38,995 nucleotides of DNA from NCBI RefSeq assembly GCF_003314995.1, contig NZ_QNRH01000016.1, positions 1 through 38,995 on the forward strand. Direction: 5' to 3'. The position numbers were made by a program, and so were the translations under genes. The notes under the pieces were generated by a model that saw only the letters and a program-made list of their open reading frames with translations, ran no database searches and was not told where the DNA came from. This document shows positions 2,590 through 26,535 of this stretch, in pieces. Position 1 is the first letter of the stretch. Each line of letters begins with the position of its first letter. Source of the DNA: Pseudochrobactrum asaccharolyticum (GTDB lineage Bacteria; Pseudomonadota; Alphaproteobacteria; Rhizobiales; Rhizobiaceae).

Positions 2590-2808
2590 TTATGGGGATA
2601 AATGTGCTGTTTTAGCTCGCTTTAGTGCCATTGAAACTACATCTTCTGCATCTCGTAAAGCTTCCAACTCTGTTTCCAGACGCTTCCAAATGGGCACAAG
2701 CAACACGGCTTCGCCCTTCGGAGCTTTAGCCATGATACCCGCAAGGATATCGAGCGCGTTCTCTACGCGCTCGGCTGTCATTGGTTTCTTCTTGCGAGCG
2801 TTTGCCAT
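2590..2808 (-). CDS. Small hypothetical phage protein
   Basis: A 72-residue, Lys-rich, mostly helical protein (begins MANARKKKPMTAERVENALD). Its ATG shares a base with the TAA of the upstream repeat-protein gene (TAATG), so the two are probably translationally coupled. It is the last gene of the leftward operon and its stop lies one base from the stop of the convergent membrane-protein gene. I do not recognise a family. It has no membrane segment or cysteine. Confidence 0.7.
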   Translation of the reverse strand: MANARKKKPMTAERVENALDILAGIMAKAPKGEAVLLVPIWKRLETELEALRDAEDVVSMALKRAKTAHLSP

Positions 2809-3860
2809 TATTCAATCTCGACAGGCTTGCCGTTTTTGAGCTTGTAAAAGGTGTTTGGTTTGATGCCGTCACGGCCAGCAATTCCAGCCCACACAGAAAT
2901 GATTTCCATATTATGGCTGCGCTCTACCAAGAAGAGAGCGCAGCCCTCTTTCCCTCGCACTTTGCCGTCGTAACCAGTTGCGGTGGCAGCGCTCCGGTTT
3001 CCCGATGCGGTGGCAGCGCTCCAGTCTCCTGATGCGGTGGCAGCGCTCCGGTATCCTGTTGCGGTGGCAGCGCTCTGGTATCCTGTTGCGGTGGCAGCGC
3101 TCCAGTCTCCTGATGCGGTGGCAGCGCTCCGGTTTCCCGATGCGGTGGCAGCGCTCCGGTTTCCCGATGCGGTGGCAGCGCTCCGGTTTCCCGATGCGGT
3201 GGCAGCGCTCCAGTCTCCTGATGCGGTGGCAGCGCTCCAGTCTCCTGATGCGGTGGCAGCGCTCTTGTCTCCCGATGCGGTGGCAGCGCTCTGGTCTCCC
3301 GATGCGGTGGCAGCGCTCTTGTCTCCCGATGCGGTGGCAGCGCTCCGGTATCCTGTTGCGGTGGCAGCGCTCTGGTATCCTGTTGCGGTGGCAGCGCTCC
3401 AGTTTCCCGATGCGGTGGCAGCGCTCCAGTCTCCTGATGCGGTGGCAGCGCTCCACTCTCCAGATGTCGTGGCGATGCTCTGAGCGCCTGAAACCTCTAC
3501 AAGTTCGTTTTTGCCTGTCGCATGTGTTGCATCAACACGCTTGGCACGATTGACAATATAGCGGACGGCAGATGCGACAAGCTCCGGAATTTTCAGCTCA
3601 GCTTTGATGGTGATTTCAGCGGCGGCGATTTTGGTATCGTCGCCGGCTTTATGTGTTTCTCCGGACAGCTCTACCTCACCATAGCGGCTGTTGGCTGGCG
3701 GGTAATAGTTGAATACATTTAGTGGGTACTCGCAGGCATGGAAGCCGCTTTCGCAAGCGATTACAGCGCCCTCGTGCTTGAAGCTCTTATTCAACTCAAA
3801 CTGAAAATCACGGCAGCACAAAGCCGCGTCAAAACCTTTATAGGCGACGATCTTAGTCAT
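2808..3860 (-). CDS. Phage protein with nineteen 9-residue SAATASG repeats (DUF7666-like)
   Basis: A 350-residue protein. The N-terminal about 120 residues (MTKIVAYKGFDAALCCRDFQ, then GFHACEYP) resemble an uncharacterised phage domain that I recall as DUF7666. The middle is 19 units of SAATASG-x-x (about residues 128-297), and a C-terminal cap (GKVRGKEGCALFLVERS) follows. The repeat style recalls beta-roll or YadA-head arrays, so an elongated beta solenoid is likely. The ATG at 3860 is preferred over an upstream GTG at 3893 because AAGGA precedes it and it overlaps the stop of the preceding gene. Function unknown; similar repeat proteins occur in other phages. Confidence 0.85.
   Translation of the reverse strand: MTKIVAYKGFDAALCCRDFQFELNKSFKHEGAVIACESGFHACEYPLNVFNYYPPANSRYGEVELSGETHKAGDDTKIAAAEITIKAELKIPELVASAVRYIVNRAKRVDATHATGKNELVEVSGAQSIATTSGEWSAATASGDWSAATASGNWSAATATGYQSAATATGYRSAATASGDKSAATASGDQSAATASGDKSAATASGDWSAATASGDWSAATASGNRSAATASGNRSAATASGNRSAATASGDWSAATATGYQSAATATGYRSAATASGDWSAATASGNRSAATATGYDGKVRGKEGCALFLVERSHNMEIISVWAGIAGRDGIKPNTFYKLKNGKPVEIE
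2970..3479 (-). repeat. 27-bp in-frame minisatellite array (19 units)
   Basis: The unit on the plus strand is GCGGTGGCAGCGCTC followed by a 12-base variable part. The repeats are contiguous and encode SAATASG-x-x on the minus strand. Variable codons give GDW, GNW, GNR, GDK, GDQ, GYQ and GYR versions. The block W-YQ-YR appears twice and runs of identical units (NR-NR-NR, DW-DW) occur, which points to slippage and unequal exchange. The first unit on the coding strand (SIATTSGEW) is degenerate. Because 27 is divisible by three, other frames are also open; they are not genes. Confidence 0.95.
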
Positions 3861-4596
3861 TAGATTTATCCTTGGAGAGGTTTGCAGGCGCACGGCTGGA
3901 TTCAGTGCATTCAGGACATTGTGATAGAAATTCGCTGTCGGGCGACTTTACTCTGTTTGTACTGGCGCAAATTGCACAAACGTGGTTTTGTTCGCTATTA
4001 CATAAATAATATGCTTTACCGTCCATAATGCGGAATGGTTGGTCATTTATGCTTGTGGTGAGCGCAGGTTTTACAAGTGCGCGAATGTCATTGGCATATA
4101 GACGATGATGATGCGCTACCAAAGTAAACGGTATGCCATCATAGGCTCCGTCACGAGTTGAGTAATACAGGGCTTCGTTGTCATGCCATTGTGCTGCCTC
4201 CTCAAGCGCCTCTTTACGTGTGGTTCTGATAGCTCCCAATAAAGATCTTAGATCTACGGTCTGTACGGCAATGCGTTCCGGCAGATTGTCACCGGCCAGC
4301 AGGGTTTCATATGTTCGCAGCAACTCAGAAAGGTCGAGTGGCGCATGATACGGTGCCTGCTCAACATCCGACAGATTGAACCAATCATCGCGGCTGGATG
4401 GGCTATCATGGATCGTCTGCGCGTAGTCTTTCGCGTCCTGTGGGCTATGGAACATCACGCAGCATGGGTTGGTGCCGCAGATTAACTGATAGCTTGTGCT
4501 GCCTGCATGCATATCTACCCAATATGTGCCATAGACGGTGACTGCGCGAAAACGGCTCTTGTATTCTGTCCATTCAAGTTTGGATTGTTCGGTCAT
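3853..4596 (-). CDS. Hypothetical phage protein with C-terminal Zn-ribbon-like cysteines
   Basis: A 247-residue soluble protein without an obvious enzyme motif. Near the C-terminus two CxxC pairs (CAIC and CPEC, about 20 residues apart) suggest a small zinc-binding knuckle. The N-terminal half is rich in aromatic residues (ITEYKSRFRAV-like start, TYWVDMH). It belongs to the leftward operon: its stop overlaps the next gene's ATG. The start at 4596 lies 12 bp from the preceding gene's stop. I do not recognise the family with confidence. Confidence 0.75.
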   Translation of the reverse strand: MTEQSKLEWTEYKSRFRAVTVYGTYWVDMHAGSTSYQLICGTNPCCVMFHSPQDAKDYAQTIHDSPSSRDDWFNLSDVEQAPYHAPLDLSELLRTYETLLAGDNLPERIAVQTVDLRSLLGAIRTTRKEALEEAAQWHDNEALYYSTRDGAYDGIPFTLVAHHHRLYANDIRALVKPALTTSINDQPFRIMDGKAYYLCNSEQNHVCAICASTNRVKSPDSEFLSQCPECTESSRAPANLSKDKSND

Positions 4597-8766: not shown

Positions 8767-9022
8767 CGAAATTACCGGCGACAGCGCCCAGACCATAGCC
8801 GTGGGGCAGCTCCGCGCTTTTATTGAGCGTGTTGAGCGACTTGAGGAAGAAAAGAAGACCATCGCCGATGATATCAAAGAGGTTTTTGCAGAGCTGAAAG
8901 GCTCCGGCTTCGATAGCAAAGCAGTCCGTACAATCATCCGACTTCGCAAAAAGGAAGTGCATGAGCGCCAAGAGGAGGAGGCAATACTCCAACTCTATAT
9001 GGACGCGCTCGGCATGTCGTGA
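8759..9022 (+). CDS. gapR: GapR-family nucleoid-associated protein (DUF2312)
   Basis: An 87-residue protein of the alphaproteobacterial DUF2312/GapR family. The hallmark stretch is [20 protein letters not shown] followed by [20 protein letters not shown] and a C-terminal helix. Caulobacter GapR clamps overtwisted AT-rich DNA and stimulates type II topoisomerases during replication. The ATG at 8759 with GGAGG upstream gives the canonical length; the open frame from 8666 is not used. In a phage it may help its own replication or alter the host nucleoid. It also marks the host as alphaproteobacterial. Confidence 0.93.
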
Positions 9023-9032
9023 GGGTATGACC

Positions 9033-10343
9033 ATGACGCACGTTTATGATCCATATGCCGCTAAGCCGGTCAAACCTGCTAAATCCATCAAGAGCAAAGC
9101 TCCGGTTAAGAAGGCTGTAAAGGCTCAGCCTAAAGTGAAGGCGAAAGCTGTTGCTGAGCCTGAGTTCTATCCGGCGCATCCGCTTGCTGATCTGTTTCCG
9201 ATGATCGAGGAAGCTGAGCGCATCATGCTGGCTGATGATATTGCTGCACATGGTCAGCATGAGCCGATTTTGTTGCTGGAAGGTATGGTGCTGGATGGTC
9301 GCAACCGGCAGTGGGCTTGTTTGCATGCCGGTGTGAAGCCGGTTTATGCGCAATTTACAGGCTCCGATCCGTTGAATTTTGTGCTTTCCAAGAACTTGCA
9401 TCGCCGTCACTTGACGGAAAGCCAGCGTGCGCTTGTTGCTGCGTCCATTGTTGATTGGGAGCGTGGTGTAAATCAGAGCACTGGCGGGGCAGCAAATTTG
9501 CCGACCCGCACGGCGGCGACAAAGTTGTCAATTTCAGAGCGGGCGGTAACAGCGGCACGGCGTGTGCGTGACCATGGTGCGCAGGAACTGATTGACGCCA
9601 TTCGTGCGGGCAAGGTTTCGATCCATGCCGGTGAGGCGCTTTCTGAATTGCATCATGCTGAGCAGTGCAAGGTACTTCGCCAAGAGCAGAAACAGATTGT
9701 TGCGAAGGCGAAGGAAATTCGCGCTGAAAAGCAGCGGGTACGTCATGCCGTGCGTCTCACGCATATGGCCATTGTTGCTGATCAGGGTAGTTCGACTGCA
9801 CCCAATATGCTGGCTGGCACATATCCGGTTATCTATGCAGATCCGCCATGGAAGTTCGGTGTTCACTCGGAGGTTACTGGCCGCGAAAAGAGCGCTGAAA
9901 ATCACTATCCGACGATGGATACGGATGAAATATGCGCTTTGTTTGAGAAAATCGGCAATCCGGTTTCAAAGGATGCGGTGCTTTTTCTCTGGGCAACAAA
10001 TCCGATGCTTCCACAGGCTCTGCAGGTCATGCAGGCATGGGGCTTTACCTATGTTCACCACTGGATCTGGGACAAGCAGGTTGCAGGCACCGGCTATTGG
10101 GGGCGCGACCGGCATGAACTGTTGTTGATTGGCAGGCGTGGCGATGTGGCTGCGCCGTTAATGGGGACGCAGCCGGAGACCGTTTATTGTGAGAAAAAGA
10201 CCCGGCATTCGGCTAAGCCTGCCTATTTTGCCGAGCAGATTGAAAAGTTTTATCCGGAGATTCCTAAGCTTGAAATGTTTTGCCGTGAACCACGCGCCGG
10301 TTGGGATGCGTGGGGCTATGAAGCCGGAGGTGCGTCATGCTGA
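9033..10343 (+). CDS. ParB-like/MT-A70 adenine methyltransferase fusion
   Basis: A 436-residue two-domain protein. A Lys/Ala-rich linker opens it, then a ParB/sulfiredoxin-like domain (about residues 40-150: EAERIMLADDIAAHGQHEPI, with DGRNRQWAC) and a helical middle. The MT-A70 N6-adenine methyltransferase domain holds the catalytic DPPW at residues 270-273 (YADPPWKFG). ATG 9033 is favoured by GAGGG spacing over ATG 9027. Such fusions are common in alphaproteobacterial phages and may protect DNA from restriction or mark replicated DNA. The target sequence cannot be read from the protein. Confidence 0.9.
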   Translation: MTHVYDPYAAKPVKPAKSIKSKAPVKKAVKAQPKVKAKAVAEPEFYPAHPLADLFPMIEEAERIMLADDIAAHGQHEPILLLEGMVLDGRNRQWACLHAGVKPVYAQFTGSDPLNFVLSKNLHRRHLTESQRALVAASIVDWERGVNQSTGGAANLPTRTAATKLSISERAVTAARRVRDHGAQELIDAIRAGKVSIHAGEALSELHHAEQCKVLRQEQKQIVAKAKEIRAEKQRVRHAVRLTHMAIVADQGSSTAPNMLAGTYPVIYADPPWKFGVHSEVTGREKSAENHYPTMDTDEICALFEKIGNPVSKDAVLFLWATNPMLPQALQVMQAWGFTYVHHWIWDKQVAGTGYWGRDRHELLLIGRRGDVAAPLMGTQPETVYCEKKTRHSAKPAYFAEQIEKFYPEIPKLEMFCREPRAGWDAWGYEAGGASC

Positions 10344-22280: not shown

Positions 22281-22718
22281 ATGGCAACAACACGGAAACT
22301 GCTTATTCAGTTCGGTGATGGCGCTGCCGTGGAGGAGTTTAAGAACTCCTGTACGATCAACACCACGCAGGATTTTACCCTTGAGGCAACTACCACAGAC
22401 GGCACTGAGCCGAACTGTGAAGATCCAAACGCACCAAACTGGGTTCTGCGTGCGGTTGATACCCTGTCTGCAGGCATCAACGGTGCCGGTACAATGGATC
22501 CTGTTTCCTATGGCGTATTGCGTACTCTGATGCTGGCCGGTCAGGATTTCAAGGTACGTGTGCTGCTGGATGGCCTGACATCCCAGCAGGGCGGCGGGTA
22601 TTTTGAAGGGGCATATGTCATGACCAGCCTTGGCGTGAACAAGGAAGGTAAGGGCTATGTTACGGCTACGGTGGCTCTGCAGAGTACCGGCGAAGTCAAG
22701 TGGGTACCAGCAACTTAA
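22281..22718 (+). CDS. Major tail tube protein
   Basis: A 145-residue tail tube subunit that polymerises into the hollow non-contractile tail. Typical parts are KLLIQFGDGAAVEEFKNSCT, the DTLSAGINGAGTMDPVSYGV segment and VTATVALQSTGEVKW at the end. GGAGA precedes the ATG. The order (terminator, tube, chaperone, tape measure) is standard. Confidence 0.93.
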   Translation: MATTRKLLIQFGDGAAVEEFKNSCTINTTQDFTLEATTTDGTEPNCEDPNAPNWVLRAVDTLSAGINGAGTMDPVSYGVLRTLMLAGQDFKVRVLLDGLTSQQGGGYFEGAYVMTSLGVNKEGKGYVTATVALQSTGEVKWVPAT

Positions 22719-22727
22719 AGGCTGATC

Positions 22728-23207
22728 ATGACCAAGTATATTAAGAAGCCTTTTGCTGGTCAGGTGCGAGACTTCCGTCTTGATATCGGTGCTCTGCGGG
22801 AATTGCAGGGCACTTGTGATGCGGGTGTTTCCACTATTTTGGCTCGGCTCATGTCTCATCAGCCGCAGGCTAAAGATCGTAAACAGCCCCAGCCTGATCA
22901 ATATGTGCAGGGCATTGCAGATCCGGATTTCATTGCGGATCTAAATCTCTATGGCATGTTCCGCAATATCGGTGGGGATTGGCGGGTTGATGATGTCCGT
23001 GAGACGATCCGGCTTGGGCTTATCGGCGGCGGTATGACACCATCGGATGCCTATTTGCTGGTTGCCACATATGTTGATGCCAGACCATTGGCAGAAAATA
23101 TCAGTCTGGCTGCTGAGGTGCTGCTTCATGCAGTCATCGGCGATCCGGATGATTCGGTGGGAAAGCCGGAAGCCGAGACAGAGACGACAGCTCAAATGAG
23201 CGCATAA
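22728..23207 (+). CDS. Tail assembly chaperone, upstream part (gpG-like; GTA gp10 family)
   Basis: A 159-residue chaperone that coats the tape measure before tube assembly. It resembles GTA-gp10-type proteins: RDFRLDIGALRELQGTCDAG, then ADLNLYGMFRNIGGDWRVDD and LGLIGGGMTPSDAYLLVATY, with a flexible acidic tail. A slippery GGGAAAG near its end fuses a fraction of the product to the -1 frame downstream. In lambda this yields gpGT. Confidence 0.9.
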   Translation: MTKYIKKPFAGQVRDFRLDIGALRELQGTCDAGVSTILARLMSHQPQAKDRKQPQPDQYVQGIADPDFIADLNLYGMFRNIGGDWRVDDVRETIRLGLIGGGMTPSDAYLLVATYVDARPLAENISLAAEVLLHAVIGDPDDSVGKPEAETETTAQMSA

Positions 23208-23217
23208 TCTTCTCGGC
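23159..23217 (+). promoter_or_regulatory. Programmed -1 ribosomal frameshift signal
   Basis: The in-frame slippery heptamer G-GGA-AAG (23159-23165) equals that of lambda G/GT. A 6-base spacer (CCGGAA) leads to a stem GCCGAGA (23172-23178) with TCTCGGC (23211-23217), a perfect 7-bp pair. An inner GCTC-AAAT-GAGC hairpin lies at 23190-23201. The gene's own TAA at 23205 ends the normal product. After slipping, the -1 frame is open to 23410. Confidence 0.85.
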
Positions 23218-23410
23218 ATATTATGCTGCCGGTGCTGCAATGCATTTCAGCCCGCAGCAAATTGATGCAATGACCCTATGGGAATTTGCTGCCTGTGTTG
23301 ACGGCTTTGTTAAAGCCAACGGTGGAACCGAAGAGACCGCACCTCCTTCATTGGAGGAGCATCATGCAATGCTGCAAAAAATGAACAACATCACCTCGCG
23401 GCAGATTTAA
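23166..23410 (+). CDS. Tail assembly chaperone, frameshift extension (gpT-like)
   Basis: This -1 frame has no stop from 23153 to 23407 and no ribosome site before its first ATG (23240), so it is most likely made only as a fusion after slippage. The end contains IDAMTLWEFAACVDGFVKAN, a motif style seen in downstream chaperone domains, and closes in HHAMLQKMNNITSRQI. The fusion would keep about 146 residues of the upstream part and add about 80. It lies immediately before the tape-measure gene, where lambda T sits. Confidence 0.85.
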
Positions 23411-23457: not shown

Positions 23458-26400
23458 ATGGCCGTTACTCTTGAGGAACTGCGTGCGACCCTTCGCATGG
23501 AGATGAAGCCGTTTATGCGTGATTTGCAGCAGATCAATGGGATCAGCGCTAAATCCGCACGTCTTATGGAAAGCACGTGGCTGCAGACCAGTAAGAAACT
23601 CGACGGCTTTGGCAAGAATATGGCTCGAAGCCTGATCACGCCTATGGCCGGTATCGGTGCGGCTCTCGGTACACGTGAGCTGGCGCAGCTGGCAGACACA
23701 TGGTCGGATCTGTCCAGTCGCGTCAATATTGCTGCTGGTAGTCAGGCCAAGGGCGTGGAGGTTATGGGGCGTCTGGGCGAAATGGCTCGGATGACCTATT
23801 CCGGTCTTGAACAAACAACAGAAAGCTATCTGAGCAATTCCACGGCCATCAAAGACCTGGGCTACAGCACCGATCAGGCTCTGGATTATACTGAGGCGCT
23901 CAATAATGCGCTCGTGGTGTCCGGAGCCAAAGGTGACAAGGCTGCCCGTGTAATTGATGCTTTGTCGAAGGCCATGGCCTTGGGCAAGCTGCAGGGCGAC
24001 AATCTGAATACTGTGATCTCCACTGGTGGCCGTGTTGCTGAGGCTCTGGCGGCAGGGCTTGGCACCTCGGTCAGTGGTCTGCGTAAACTTGGTGCTGAGA
24101 GCAAGATCACCGGTCGTGATATCGTCACGGCTCTGTCCAGCCAGATGGCAACGCTTCGTAAAGAAGCTGAGAGCATGCCAGCCACTATTAGTGATGGTTT
24201 CCAGCTGCTCAACAATGCCATGCTACAGTATGTTGGTAATGCAGACACTGCGACCGGTATTTCTGCCAAAGTTGCAGAGGCGCTGATTATCATCGCCGAT
24301 AATTTCGATAAGGTTGCTGATACAGGCCTGCAGGTGGCCGCAGTTATTGCTGGTGCTCTCGTTGGCCGGTCACTTACCGGCATGATCGCGAAGCTTGCGC
24401 TGAGCACGGCAGAACTGAAAAAATTCATTAGCATGCTTTCTGCAGCTCGTACCCTTGGCGGTATGGCCACGGCAATGACTGGTCTGAGTGCTGCAGCCGG
24501 TCCACTTGGTTTAATTATCGGTGGAGCGGTTGTTGGCTCGCTGGTCAATTACGGAATAGCCTCCGCTGATGCTGCAGAAAAATCTAAGACCTTCCAGCGT
24601 GAACTTGAAAATATGGGTTTGCTGGCCAAACAGGCTGCAGAGGATGTTGATGCGGCAGCTGTATCAATTGAGGAACTGTCTGATGCCGACAAAAGACGCA
24701 AGTTAAAGGCTATCAGTGAAGAGCTGGATCGGTTGCGCAATGGTGGCGGCTTATTCGGCGGTCAAGGTGATGAGCTTGGATCTATTGCTGATCGTGCAAT
24801 GAGAGCGTTGTGGAGTCTTCAAGGTCAGTTTTCACTATCAACTGAAGATAAAGATGGTCGTAAAGAAATTGCTAATATTGCTAATGAGTTCCGCGATACT
24901 TTCATACTCGCAGACGAAGCAAAACAGCGCTTGGAAGCGCTTAAAAACACGGACATTAGTCAGCCGGTTGTTGATCTAGCTAATGAGCTACTTCGCACTA
25001 TTGATGTGATCGCTGCGGGTGAGGCTGCTGCAGTTAGCTTTGGGGAAATGCCCGGACTGGTGGAGGCTAAGCAGGAAGTTATAGAACTTCGTGATCAGCT
25101 TTCTACTTTGGCTGAGCAGGATCAAATTACTGCAGCCCAGCAAAAAGCACTCGAAGAGTTGGTTGATAAGTTAACCGCGACCGAAGATGGTGCGGATGAT
25201 GCCCGAGTGGCATTGGCAAAGATTGGCCAAGACTTGCCAAATCTTGCCGGTTTTCTCTCCACCATGGATGCGGCAATCGCTAAGCTGGGCGTTGTCATCG
25301 CCAAATCTAAGGAAGCGAATGCAGCGCTTGCCAATGCGGGTATCAATTCCAAAACGGTTGATGCTTATAAACAATATCAGACCTCCCGCAATGAGGGAGA
25401 GGTCATCGTTGCCCAGCGTAAAGCCTATGAGCAAGACGCCATTCGCAAGTCAAAACTCGGCAAAGACCAGTATGCCCTCGAGGAGAAGATTGCGGCCGTA
25501 AAGGCCAAATCGCTCAAAGATGGTGTTGAGCTGACCGAAGATGCAATCCGGCGAATTGCACAAGCACAATTGGATGGTGAGAAATCCCGCACTGGTGAAG
25601 GCAAAAAACCAAAACGCGAAAAGCATAAAAAGACCGGTGAGGATTTCTTTGCTGCTGAAATCCAGCAGGTTAAGGATCGCACGGCAGCACTGGCCGAAGA
25701 GGCGCGGGTGACCGGCCTGACATATGTGGAGCAGGAAAAGCGCATGATGGCGCTGGATCTTGAGCAGTCAGTTTTGCAGCGCCTTCGTGAAGAGGCACGG
25801 CAAAAAGGTGTGACAGATCTGGATAGCATCAAGCTTTCACCTTCTCAGGTCAGTGCAATCAATGCTGTGTCTGAAGCTTATGCCAATCAGGCTGATGAAT
25901 TGCGCAAGGTGCAAGAGGCTCAGAATAATGCCGAGAATGCTGCGCAGCAGTTTTCAGACAGCATGCGGTCTGGCTTCGTCGGTCTGGTAACCGGTGCAAA
26001 TTCTTTCAAAGATGCTCTTAGTGGCCTTCTGAAAAAGTTGAGTGAGTTACTTCTGAATAGTGCATTTACCGCTTTTATGGGCGGCACTGGTGCTACGCAA
26101 TCAGGTGGTTGGCTAACGGGCGTCATGAAAGCCATCGGTTTTGCTGAGGGTGGATACACCGGTGATGGTGGAAAGTATGAAGCCAAAGGTATCGTGCACG
26201 GCGGCGAATTTGTTTTTGATAAGCAGGCAACTGCCAAGGCAGGGGTAGGTAACCTTGAGGCTCTGCGCCGCAATCTCAAAGGCTATGCAAATGGCGGATA
26301 TGTTGGGACACCGGCTATGCCTTCAATCCCGATGCCTCGTACACCTGATGTTAGCCAGATGAAAAGTAATGCCGGATCTGTCACGGCTCCGGTATCCATT

Positions 26401-26535
26401 CAAATCGATGCAAAGGGTGCTGACTCTGCCGGTTTGGCTAGAGTTGAACAGCAACTGGCTAAACTCAAAGCCGATATCCCTTCGCACGTCATTCAATCTG
26501 TACGCAAAGCTCAGAAATCTAATGTGAGGTTCTAA
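23458..26535 (+). CDS. Tape measure protein
   Basis: A 1025-residue protein that sets tail length and helps DNA entry. The tape-measure core near residues 65-210 is recognisable (LADTWSDLSSRVNIAAGSQA, then KAMALGKLQGDNLNTVISTG). Hydrophobic segments near 285-365 follow (AAVIAGALVGRSLTGMIAKL), then long coiled-coil helices and a Gly-rich C-terminus with FAEGGYTGDGGKYEAKGIVH and GGEFVFDKQATAKAG, typical of these proteins. Length implies a tail of roughly 150 nm by the usual 0.15 nm per residue rule. Confidence 0.95.
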   Translation: MAVTLEELRATLRMEMKPFMRDLQQINGISAKSARLMESTWLQTSKKLDGFGKNMARSLITPMAGIGAALGTRELAQLADTWSDLSSRVNIAAGSQAKGVEVMGRLGEMARMTYSGLEQTTESYLSNSTAIKDLGYSTDQALDYTEALNNALVVSGAKGDKAARVIDALSKAMALGKLQGDNLNTVISTGGRVAEALAAGLGTSVSGLRKLGAESKITGRDIVTALSSQMATLRKEAESMPATISDGFQLLNNAMLQYVGNADTATGISAKVAEALIIIADNFDKVADTGLQVAAVIAGALVGRSLTGMIAKLALSTAELKKFISMLSAARTLGGMATAMTGLSAAAGPLGLIIGGAVVGSLVNYGIASADAAEKSKTFQRELENMGLLAKQAAEDVDAAAVSIEELSDADKRRKLKAISEELDRLRNGGGLFGGQGDELGSIADRAMRALWSLQGQFSLSTEDKDGRKEIANIANEFRDTFILADEAKQRLEALKNTDISQPVVDLANELLRTIDVIAAGEAAAVSFGEMPGLVEAKQEVIELRDQLSTLAEQDQITAAQQKALEELVDKLTATEDGADDARVALAKIGQDLPNLAGFLSTMDAAIAKLGVVIAKSKEANAALANAGINSKTVDAYKQYQTSRNEGEVIVAQRKAYEQDAIRKSKLGKDQYALEEKIAAVKAKSLKDGVELTEDAIRRIAQAQLDGEKSRTGEGKKPKREKHKKTGEDFFAAEIQQVKDRTAALAEEARVTGLTYVEQEKRMMALDLEQSVLQRLREEARQKGVTDLDSIKLSPSQVSAINAVSEAYANQADELRKVQEAQNNAENAAQQFSDSMRSGFVGLVTGANSFKDALSGLLKKLSELLLNSAFTAFMGGTGATQSGGWLTGVMKAIGFAEGGYTGDGGKYEAKGIVHGGEFVFDKQATAKAGVGNLEALRRNLKGYANGGYVGTPAMPSIPMPRTPDVSQMKSNAGSVTAPVSIQIDAKGADSAGLARVEQQLAKLKADIPSHVIQSVRKAQKSNVRF

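What the first reader, a model, noticed from the sequence alone, without database searches (positions are those of the whole stretch)
22728..23410. Lambda-type programmed -1 frameshift in the tail chaperone with stimulatory stem
GGGAAAG is in the correct frame. A 6-base spacer leads to a perfect 7-bp stem and an inner 4-bp hairpin. The -1 frame continues without stops through a WEFAACVDGFVKA domain and ends right before the tape measure. Standard gene calling would miss the extension.
Basis: seen in the sequence. Interest (0 to 1): 0.7.

Follow-up and report, generated by a model that had tools for sequence, protein, structure and literature searches.

The report
Ribosomal frameshift in phage tail chaperone
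A prophage gene just before the tail-length ruler gene carries a sequence that very probably makes some ribosomes slip back one base and build a longer tail-assembly helper protein; this is a well-known phage trick, found here in a gene family whose inspected database records do not mark it.

Summary
A Phage_TAC_11 (GTA gp10-type) gene (22728-23207) carries G GGA AAG at 23159-23165 in the right frame; six bases later comes a 7-bp stem (23172-23178/23211-23217; z -4.4). The -1 frame stays open to 23410, just before the tape measure gene (23458).

Relatives make a programmed -1 frameshift very likely. Of 133 loci, 129 have the extension, all in the -1 frame. Of 97 distinct loci (window included), 96 have a slip motif at or near the same spot: GGGGGAR 45, GGGAAAR 37, AAAAAAR 14. 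With the place fixed by protein alignment alone, 86 of 86 have one; synonymous resampling gives 5.7. A stem follows after 4-7 nt in 83 of 96 and covaries in 16 close relatives. In the window, conserved extension residues lie upstream of its first start codon.

This is a new member of a known kind (lambda G/GT). GGGGGAA is already a published chaperone motif. No protein product has been seen.

Wider lead: some gene transfer agent clusters seem to use the same device (C CCT TTC) between TAC_11 and TAC_6, while relatives use an overlapping start/stop.

The parts
22728..23207 (+). 0-frame tail assembly chaperone ('G' part), 159 aa, Phage_TAC_11 family
   Evidence: PF11836 E 1.9e-21; phrog_8985 E 8.8e-33; lies between the Phage_tail_2 tail tube gene 22281-22718 and the tape measure gene
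23159..23165 (+). slippery heptamer G GGA AAG (in frame with the 22728 start)
   Evidence: sequence; slip motif at or near this place in 96 of 97 distinct loci
23166..23171 (+). 6-nt spacer
   Evidence: sequence; spacer of 4-7 nt in 83 of 96 loci, 5-6 nt in 65 of 96, within a search range of 2-13 nt
23172..23178 (+). 5' arm of the stimulatory stem
   Evidence: fold z -4.40; covariation in 16 close relatives, window included
23190..23201 (+). inner 4-bp hairpin (GCTC AAAT GAGC)
   Evidence: conservation not tested
23211..23217 (+). 3' arm of the stem; overlaps the -1 frame codons of the conserved F-S motif; the 0-frame stop (23205-23207) lies in the loop
23165..23410 (+). -1 frame extension ('T' part), 81 codons plus stop; predicted fusion product 146 + 81 = 227 aa
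   Evidence: homologous -1 frame extension in 129 of 133 loci; remote profile match to the TAC_6 proteins of GTA-type clusters
23458..26535 (+). tape measure protein gene (neighbour that defines the position)
   Evidence: TMP_3 E 4.2e-50

Best explanation
It is a programmed -1 ribosomal frameshift in the tail assembly chaperone gene of a siphophage-type prophage. Most ribosomes finish the 159-residue chaperone. A minority, paused by the stem 6 nt downstream, slip back one base on G GGA AAG, pass the 0-frame stop and make a 227-residue fusion with the extension. By analogy with lambda G and GT, many copies of the short form would coat the tape measure protein and few copies of the fusion would recruit the tail tube subunit. 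Shown here: the sequence layout, its conservation, the frame relation, the stem with covariation. Inferred: that slippage happens, its rate, and the roles of the two proteins.
For: 129 of 129 loci in which both parts were found have them in the -1 relation (133 loci examined); the search is not tied to a frame, as it also found an in-frame case. 96 of 97 distinct loci have a slip motif at or near the same place, 77 at exactly the expected position. Test with the place set by the protein profile alone: of 97 loci, 86 have a residue aligned to the conserved Gly, and its codon is GGG in 44, GGA in 41, GGT in 1 and GGC in 0, although GGC is 56% of Gly codons upstream in these genes; GGG is always followed by Glu and GGA by Lys. 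In the same 86, a motif is present in 86, against 5.7 (max 14 in 500 runs) after synonymous resampling; GGGAAAR/AAAAAAR alone 42 against 2.0 (max 7). In L035 the 0-frame stop follows the heptamer directly (CTG GGA AAA TAG), in L029 it follows GGG GAG with only 13 nt of overlap. In the window the conserved F-S-x-Y-Y part of the extension lies upstream of the first ATG/GTG/TTG of that frame, ATG 23240; over the family no such codon lies between slip site and core in 75 of the 80 loci whose core a pattern could find. Stem: 87 of 96 loci have a stem scoring 7 or more just downstream, against 146 of 672 windows elsewhere in the same loci. In 16 close relatives 93.8% of pair cells are paired against 43.0-64.8% when slid; 16 cells changed on both sides and a covariation score of 0.427, neither reached in 500 shuffles. 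Position before the tape measure gene.
Against: No product was measured. The extension has no Pfam match above cut-off in the 33 family members scanned, the window's included, and Foldseek found no solved structure like either part. One distinct locus (L071) has no recognised slip motif; three loci (L037, L038, L045) have a TAC_11 match but no extension, and a fourth (L069) ends there. One named phage, RHph_X2_26, has both parts in one frame. Five of 80 loci, L029 among them, do have a start codon between slip site and core, so re-initiation is not excluded for these. Two of the five covariation measures do not exceed their shuffles (pairs changed on both sides 4, reached by 57 of 500; further pair types 9, reached by 457 of 500). 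Fold z-scores are modest in many loci: 31 of 96 below -2, against 51 of 480 control windows. Loci are not phylogenetically independent, and 11 of 97 did not reach the profile column.
Confidence: 0.93

Rival explanations
1. The two parts are separate genes; the small downstream ORF is started on its own at ATG 23240 (56 aa) by re-initiation or its own ribosome binding site, and the heptamer is coincidental.
For: phrog_18467 begins at this ATG, and 6 of 9 inspected phage records annotate the downstream part as a separate ORF. In GTA-type loci of one family the homologous pair has a start codon overlapping the first gene's stop (19 of 27 loci). 5 of 80 family loci have a start codon between slip site and core.
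Against: In the window, conserved extension residues lie upstream of the ATG and no ATG, GTG or TTG precedes it in that frame; no purine-rich ribosome binding site just before 23240 by eye; slip motif and stem are kept far beyond the coding need tested.
Confidence: 0.04
2. The -1 product is made by RNA polymerase slippage rather than by the ribosome.
For: The family includes runs of A (AAAAAAR in 14 of 97), where transcription slippage is possible (established knowledge of the process, not tested).
Against: The window has only GGGAAAG, a short mixed run; a stem downstream with a 4-7 nt spacer in 83 of 96 loci fits ribosome pausing.
Confidence: 0.02
3. The gene is a decayed or wrongly sequenced fusion; the frame break is a defect.
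For: RHph_X2_26 has both parts in one frame.
Against: 129 of 129 loci with both parts share the same break in the same direction, which defects would not.
Confidence: 0.01

Closest known systems
Phage lambda G / GT tail assembly chaperones (programmed -1 frameshift on GGGAAAG)
   Same: Same gene position before the tape measure, -1 direction, short and extended product. PMC5009743 (passages read) describes lambda G-T frameshifting, the 30:1 ratio, G binding the tape measure and T the tail subunit, and G_GGA_AAG as highly shift-prone in E. coli. That lambda's own heptamer is GGGAAAG is recalled.
   Different: The protein matches PF11836 and no other Pfam family. A covarying stem 4-7 nt downstream is a clear feature here; lambda's downstream sequence was not compared. 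Ratio and roles unmeasured.
TAC_11 tail chaperones of rhizobial phages (16-3, NV1.1.1, RHph_X2_25, RHph_TM3_3_14B) and RcGTA g10
   Same: Same 0-frame family, -1 extension and a slip motif in these four phages. RcGTA g10 and phage 16-3 are linked by pfam11836 in PMC11409702 (passages read).
   Different: Of 9 phage records inspected (of 13 hit) none shows a joined product there. PMC11409702 names the GTA pair tail chaperone 1 (g10) and 2 (g10.5) and its main text has no occurrence of 'frameshift'.
Caulobacter phage phiCbK chaperones (AAAAAAC; GGGAAAC in Colossus)
   Same: Published -1 frameshifted chaperone pair before the tape measure in phages of an alphaproteobacterium (PMC3556154, passages read).
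   Different: Different slip motif; protein relation to the window not tested.
'fivetwo' GGGGGAA chaperone slip motif of actinobacteriophages (PRFect)
   Same: 45 of 97 distinct loci of this family use GGGGGAR. PMC10885494 reports GGGGGAA across the thousand or so 'fivetwo' motifs of its SEA-PHAGES data and proposes G:U pairing (passages read).
   Different: Here mostly GGGGGAG (40 of 45), in another phage family. The window itself has the canonical heptamer.

Membership tests
Lambda-type (G/GT) programmed -1 frameshift of tail assembly chaperones | Two overlapping reading frames directly upstream of the tape measure gene | tested here: met
   22728-23207 and -1 frame to 23410, tape measure at 23458
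Lambda-type (G/GT) programmed -1 frameshift of tail assembly chaperones | X XXY YYZ heptamer in the upstream gene's frame inside the overlap | tested here: met
   G GGA AAG 23159-23165; -1 frame open from 52 nt before the 0-frame stop
Lambda-type (G/GT) programmed -1 frameshift of tail assembly chaperones | Frame relation and slip site conserved among relatives | tested here: met
   129 of 129 with both parts in -1 frame; slip motif in 96 of 97, GGGAAAR or AAAAAAR in 51 of 97
Lambda-type (G/GT) programmed -1 frameshift of tail assembly chaperones | Both short and extended proteins are made in an unequal ratio | not testable with these tools
   needs protein data
Lambda-type (G/GT) programmed -1 frameshift of tail assembly chaperones | Short form binds the tape measure, extension binds the tail tube protein | not testable with these tools
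   needs binding assays
Phage_TAC_11 (PF11836, GTA gp10) family | Match over Pfam's gathering score | tested here: met
   76.4 bits against 27.8, in two stretches
Phage_TAC_6 (PF09550) family for the extension | Match over Pfam's gathering score | tested here: not met
   No PF09550 hit for the 33 extensions scanned, the window's included. Remote relation only: hhalign of the extension profile with GTA-type extensions, probability 93.1, E 3.3e-7, 47 columns; 5 of 5 GTA-type extensions scanned match PF09550 (5 of the 22 in that alignment)
Lambda gpG protein family | Sequence match to the lambda G family in Pfam | tested here: not met
   Only PF11836 was hit at E up to 10; no direct alignment with lambda gpG was made

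The most novel reading that the evidence does not exclude
Gene transfer agents keep, in some lineages, the phage frameshift that couples the two tail chaperones (g10 TAC_11 and g10.5 TAC_6), on C CCT TTC about 20 nt before the g10 stop. Relatives in the same bacterial family have an overlapping start/stop (RTGA) instead. The mode of coupling, and so presumably the chaperone ratio that governs tail assembly, has thus switched during GTA domestication.
Probability: 0.5. Interest if true: 0.55.

Novelty: new member of a known kind. Interest (0 to 1): 0.3.

Why it matters
The window adds a well-supported case to a known kind. The gain is mainly for annotation: in the 9 phage records inspected, this chaperone is recorded as 'tail tube protein', hypothetical, TAC11 or GTA-family protein, with the extension as a separate small ORF (6), unannotated (2) or in one frame (1), although the two very probably form one frameshifted product. 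The family also offers natural variants (GGGAAAR, AAAAAAR, GGGGGAR) at one place with a stem behind them, useful for measuring what a slip site needs. If the GTA lead holds, it would show how a domesticated phage changes the coupling of two assembly proteins.

Tried and rejected
Fold search of both predicted parts against solved structures gave nothing usable (best E 1.9 and 7.0). A scan of viral contigs with the extension alignment A1 was not possible because no stretch was conserved enough. GGGGGAR as a new slip motif: rejected as new, since PMC10885494 reports GGGGGAA. A search for GGGGGAG with 'frameshift' and 'phage' gave 1 paper, a Corynebacterium genome (listing only); one for GGGGGAA with 'ribosomal frameshift' listed PRFect and a corynephage genome (PMC5506516, listing only). 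A first form of the codon argument (Gly codon counted only at sites chosen by the motif) was circular and was replaced. TTT-codon selection as proof of the GTA site: weak, since the F codon of the FPW motif is TTT also in 12 of 20 RTGA-only loci. Downstream structure at the GTA site: mixed, z (mononucleotide shuffles) below -3 in 4 of 14 loci and above 0 in 7 of 14.

Published GTA chaperone frameshift: searches (4 papers; 118, of which 20 listed; 7; 12) showed none. Passages were read of PMC10299305, PMC11409702, PMC9022992, PMC8718954, PMC9601964, PMC8601537, PMC4882933, PMC3556154, PMC10127595; in PMC7296036 the terms looked for did not occur; other listed papers were not opened. PMC8601537 and PMC4882933 report chaperone frameshifts for Rhodobacter phages, not for the GTA. 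A search for 'programmed ribosomal frameshift' with 'tail assembly chaperone' and 'alphaproteobacteria' gave 0 papers, although such cases are in print under other words. Xu, Hendrix and Duda 2004 was not looked up and is known here only through citations.

Full report
What is there. The window's late region runs terminase, portal, protease, capsid, then tail terminator, tail tube protein, a TAC_11 gene and the tape measure gene. The TAC_11 gene is 22728-23207 (159 aa, PF11836 E 1.9e-21). In its frame, codons 145-146 are GGA AAG preceded by G: the heptamer G GGA AAG at 23159-23165. Slipping back by one base gives GGG AAA and then 81 further codons from 23165 to TAA at 23410. The tape measure gene begins 48 nt after that stop. 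GGGAAAG as such is not rare: 2 matches in the window on both strands, 4.03 expected. The case therefore rests on position, frame and relatives.

Relatives. That makes 133 loci, three of them the window itself (L001, L002, L010) and others repeated between collections. In all 133 a profile of the 0-frame protein hits; in 129 a profile of the extension hits within reach, always in the -1 frame. Four lack it: L069, whose contig ends there, and L037, L038, L045. The profiles were built from loci chosen after seeing the motif, but the search is not tied to a frame: it also found the in-frame case of RHph_X2_26.

Slip site. Removing near copies (90% DNA identity) leaves 97 of 129, the window included. 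Near the end of the conserved 0-frame domain 96 of 97 have a slip motif in frame: GGGGGAR 45, GGGAAAR 37, AAAAAAR 14; L071 has none. The position is exactly the expected one in 77 and within 12 nt in 94. A first resampling test, with the window centred on the observed site, gave 6.7 expected against 96 of 97. A cleaner one fixes the place by the protein profile alone: 86 of 97 loci have a residue at the conserved Gly column. Its codon is GGG 44 (always before Glu), GGA 41 and GGT 1 (before Lys), GGC 0, while GGC makes 56% of Gly codons upstream. A motif is present in 86 of 86 against 5.7 (sd 2.4, max 14) after synonymous resampling, and GGGAAAR/AAAAAAR in 42 against 2.0 (max 7). Of the 45 GGGGGAR loci, 43 have no GGGAAAR or AAAAAAR in frame within 70 nt. 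In L035 the stop follows GGA AAA directly, and in L029 it follows GGG GAG with 13 nt of overlap; L029 does have a start codon before or at its core, so it pins the site less firmly.

Stem. In the window the stem begins 6 nt after the heptamer and encloses the 0-frame stop; z is -4.40. Across 96 loci the best ungapped stem starting 2-13 nt downstream scores 7 or more in 87, against 146 of 672 windows elsewhere in the same loci; the spacer is 5-6 nt in 65 and 4-7 nt in 83, and there are 76 different 5' arms. In 16 close relatives, window included, the helix has 93.8% of cells paired, against 43.0-64.8% when slid by 1-3 columns. Cells changed on both sides (16) and covariation score (0.427) are not reached in 500 shuffles; the number of pairs so changed (4) and of further pair types (9) are not beyond theirs. 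L108 was left out because its arms do not fit this register. The structure was read from these same sequences, which favours it over the slid versions. Average folding energy is a weaker signal: mean z -1.40 at the site against -0.36 in 480 control windows. Relatedness was not corrected for.

Why not a separate gene. In the window the conserved extension starts with F-S-x-Y-Y, upstream of the first ATG (23240) of that frame, and no ATG, GTG or TTG precedes it there. Over the family no such codon lies between slip site and core in 75 of the 80 loci whose core a simple pattern found; L016, L029, L033, L075 and L077 have one. The family profile phrog_18467 starts at the window's ATG, as gene callers would. 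Among nine phage records inspected, of 13 hit, six annotate the downstream part as its own ORF, two not at all and one (RHph_X2_26) has a single in-frame ORF; none shows a joined product there. Eight of the nine have a slip motif and a -1 extension.

The proteins. AlphaFold gives mainly helical models for both parts (mean pLDDT 88.9 and 81.1, the first with two short strands), with no solved relative found. The extension profile aligns with the TAC_6-like proteins of GTA-type loci (probability 93.1, E 3.3e-7, 47 columns), of which 5 of 5 scanned match PF09550. So the pair in the window probably corresponds to GTA chaperones 1 and 2 joined by a frameshift; this rests on a remote profile match.

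GTA lead. TAC_11 loci came from a class-wide sample (289 genomes, 41 with a match, 30 loci) and from two families (6 and 40 genomes): 60 loci, read. In most the TAC_6-like domain lies in the -1 frame, but in L160 and L165 it lies in the +1 frame, and in L155, L163 and L166 none was seen. Of the 60, 54 were classified: 26 with a start codon overlapping the 0-frame stop only, 13 with a slip motif only, 8 with both, 7 with neither (GGGAAAC and AAAAAAT counted as slip motifs, and 'both' includes TTG triplets lying inside the conserved domain). Fourteen have C CCT TTC 19-22 nt before the stop, followed by CC[CT] TGG; in all 14 no start codon precedes the FPW motif within the last 60 nt of the 0-frame gene. 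In L174 the -1 frame opens only 22 nt before the stop. In the family of G305, 19 of 27 newly fetched loci have the overlapping start and 6 have C CCT TTC (L190 skipped, L195 neither). One example of each was checked and both lie in GTA-type clusters with GTA_TIM and Rcc01698 C-terminal domains. Against: half of the 14 show no downstream structure, and part of the motif's conservation may be forced by the two overlapping codings. Searches of the held library found no report of a GTA chaperone frameshift.

Verdict. The finding is real and correctly read. It is a new member of the lambda G/GT kind. Frameshifted chaperones in phages of Caulobacter and Rhodobacter, both alphaproteobacteria, are already in print (PMC3556154, PMC4882933, PMC8601537; passages read).

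Noticed in passing
L145, L149, L150, L152, L153, L173-L175, L197-L202: GTA-type TAC_11/TAC_6 pairs (14 loci) with C CCT TTC 19-22 nt before the 0-frame stop and no start codon before the FPW motif: a possible unreported -1 frameshift in gene transfer agents.
   Followed up: partly
L176-L189, L191-L194, L196: Relatives in the same bacterial family (19 loci) couple the same two genes by an overlapping start/stop (RTGA) and have no slip motif.
   Followed up: partly
L160, L165: Here the TAC_6-like domain lies in the +1 frame relative to TAC_11, unlike most other pairs: +1 shift, separate gene or sequencing slip.
   Followed up: no
L142:1486-2058 (RHph_X2_26, MW960037.1): Both chaperone parts lie in one reading frame with no slip motif: a natural fusion or a sequencing slip. 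How the short form would be made is unclear.
   Followed up: no
L143 (G000:C1:354549-354836): The window's own genome has a second TAC_11 gene outside the window, followed in the -1 frame by a TAC_6-like domain, with A AAA AAT directly before the stop; an ATG just before its FPW motif makes separate initiation possible.
   Followed up: partly
22728-23207, residues about 44-82: The close relatives share an insert of about 39 residues in the TAC_11 domain that splits the Pfam match into two stretches; the other members of the alignment lack it.
   Followed up: no
L071: The only one of 97 distinct loci with a -1 extension but none of the three slip motifs; it reads TTG GAA AAG near the place.
   Followed up: no
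22728-23207: Pfam, PHROGs and several phage records name this family 'tail tube protein', although the gene before it (22281-22718) is the one that matches the tail tube family Phage_tail_2.
   Followed up: partly
8961-10343 (+) and 2808-3893 (-): An MT-A70 type methyltransferase gene and a large minus-strand ORF with a DUF7666 domain upstream of the structural genes.
   Followed up: no
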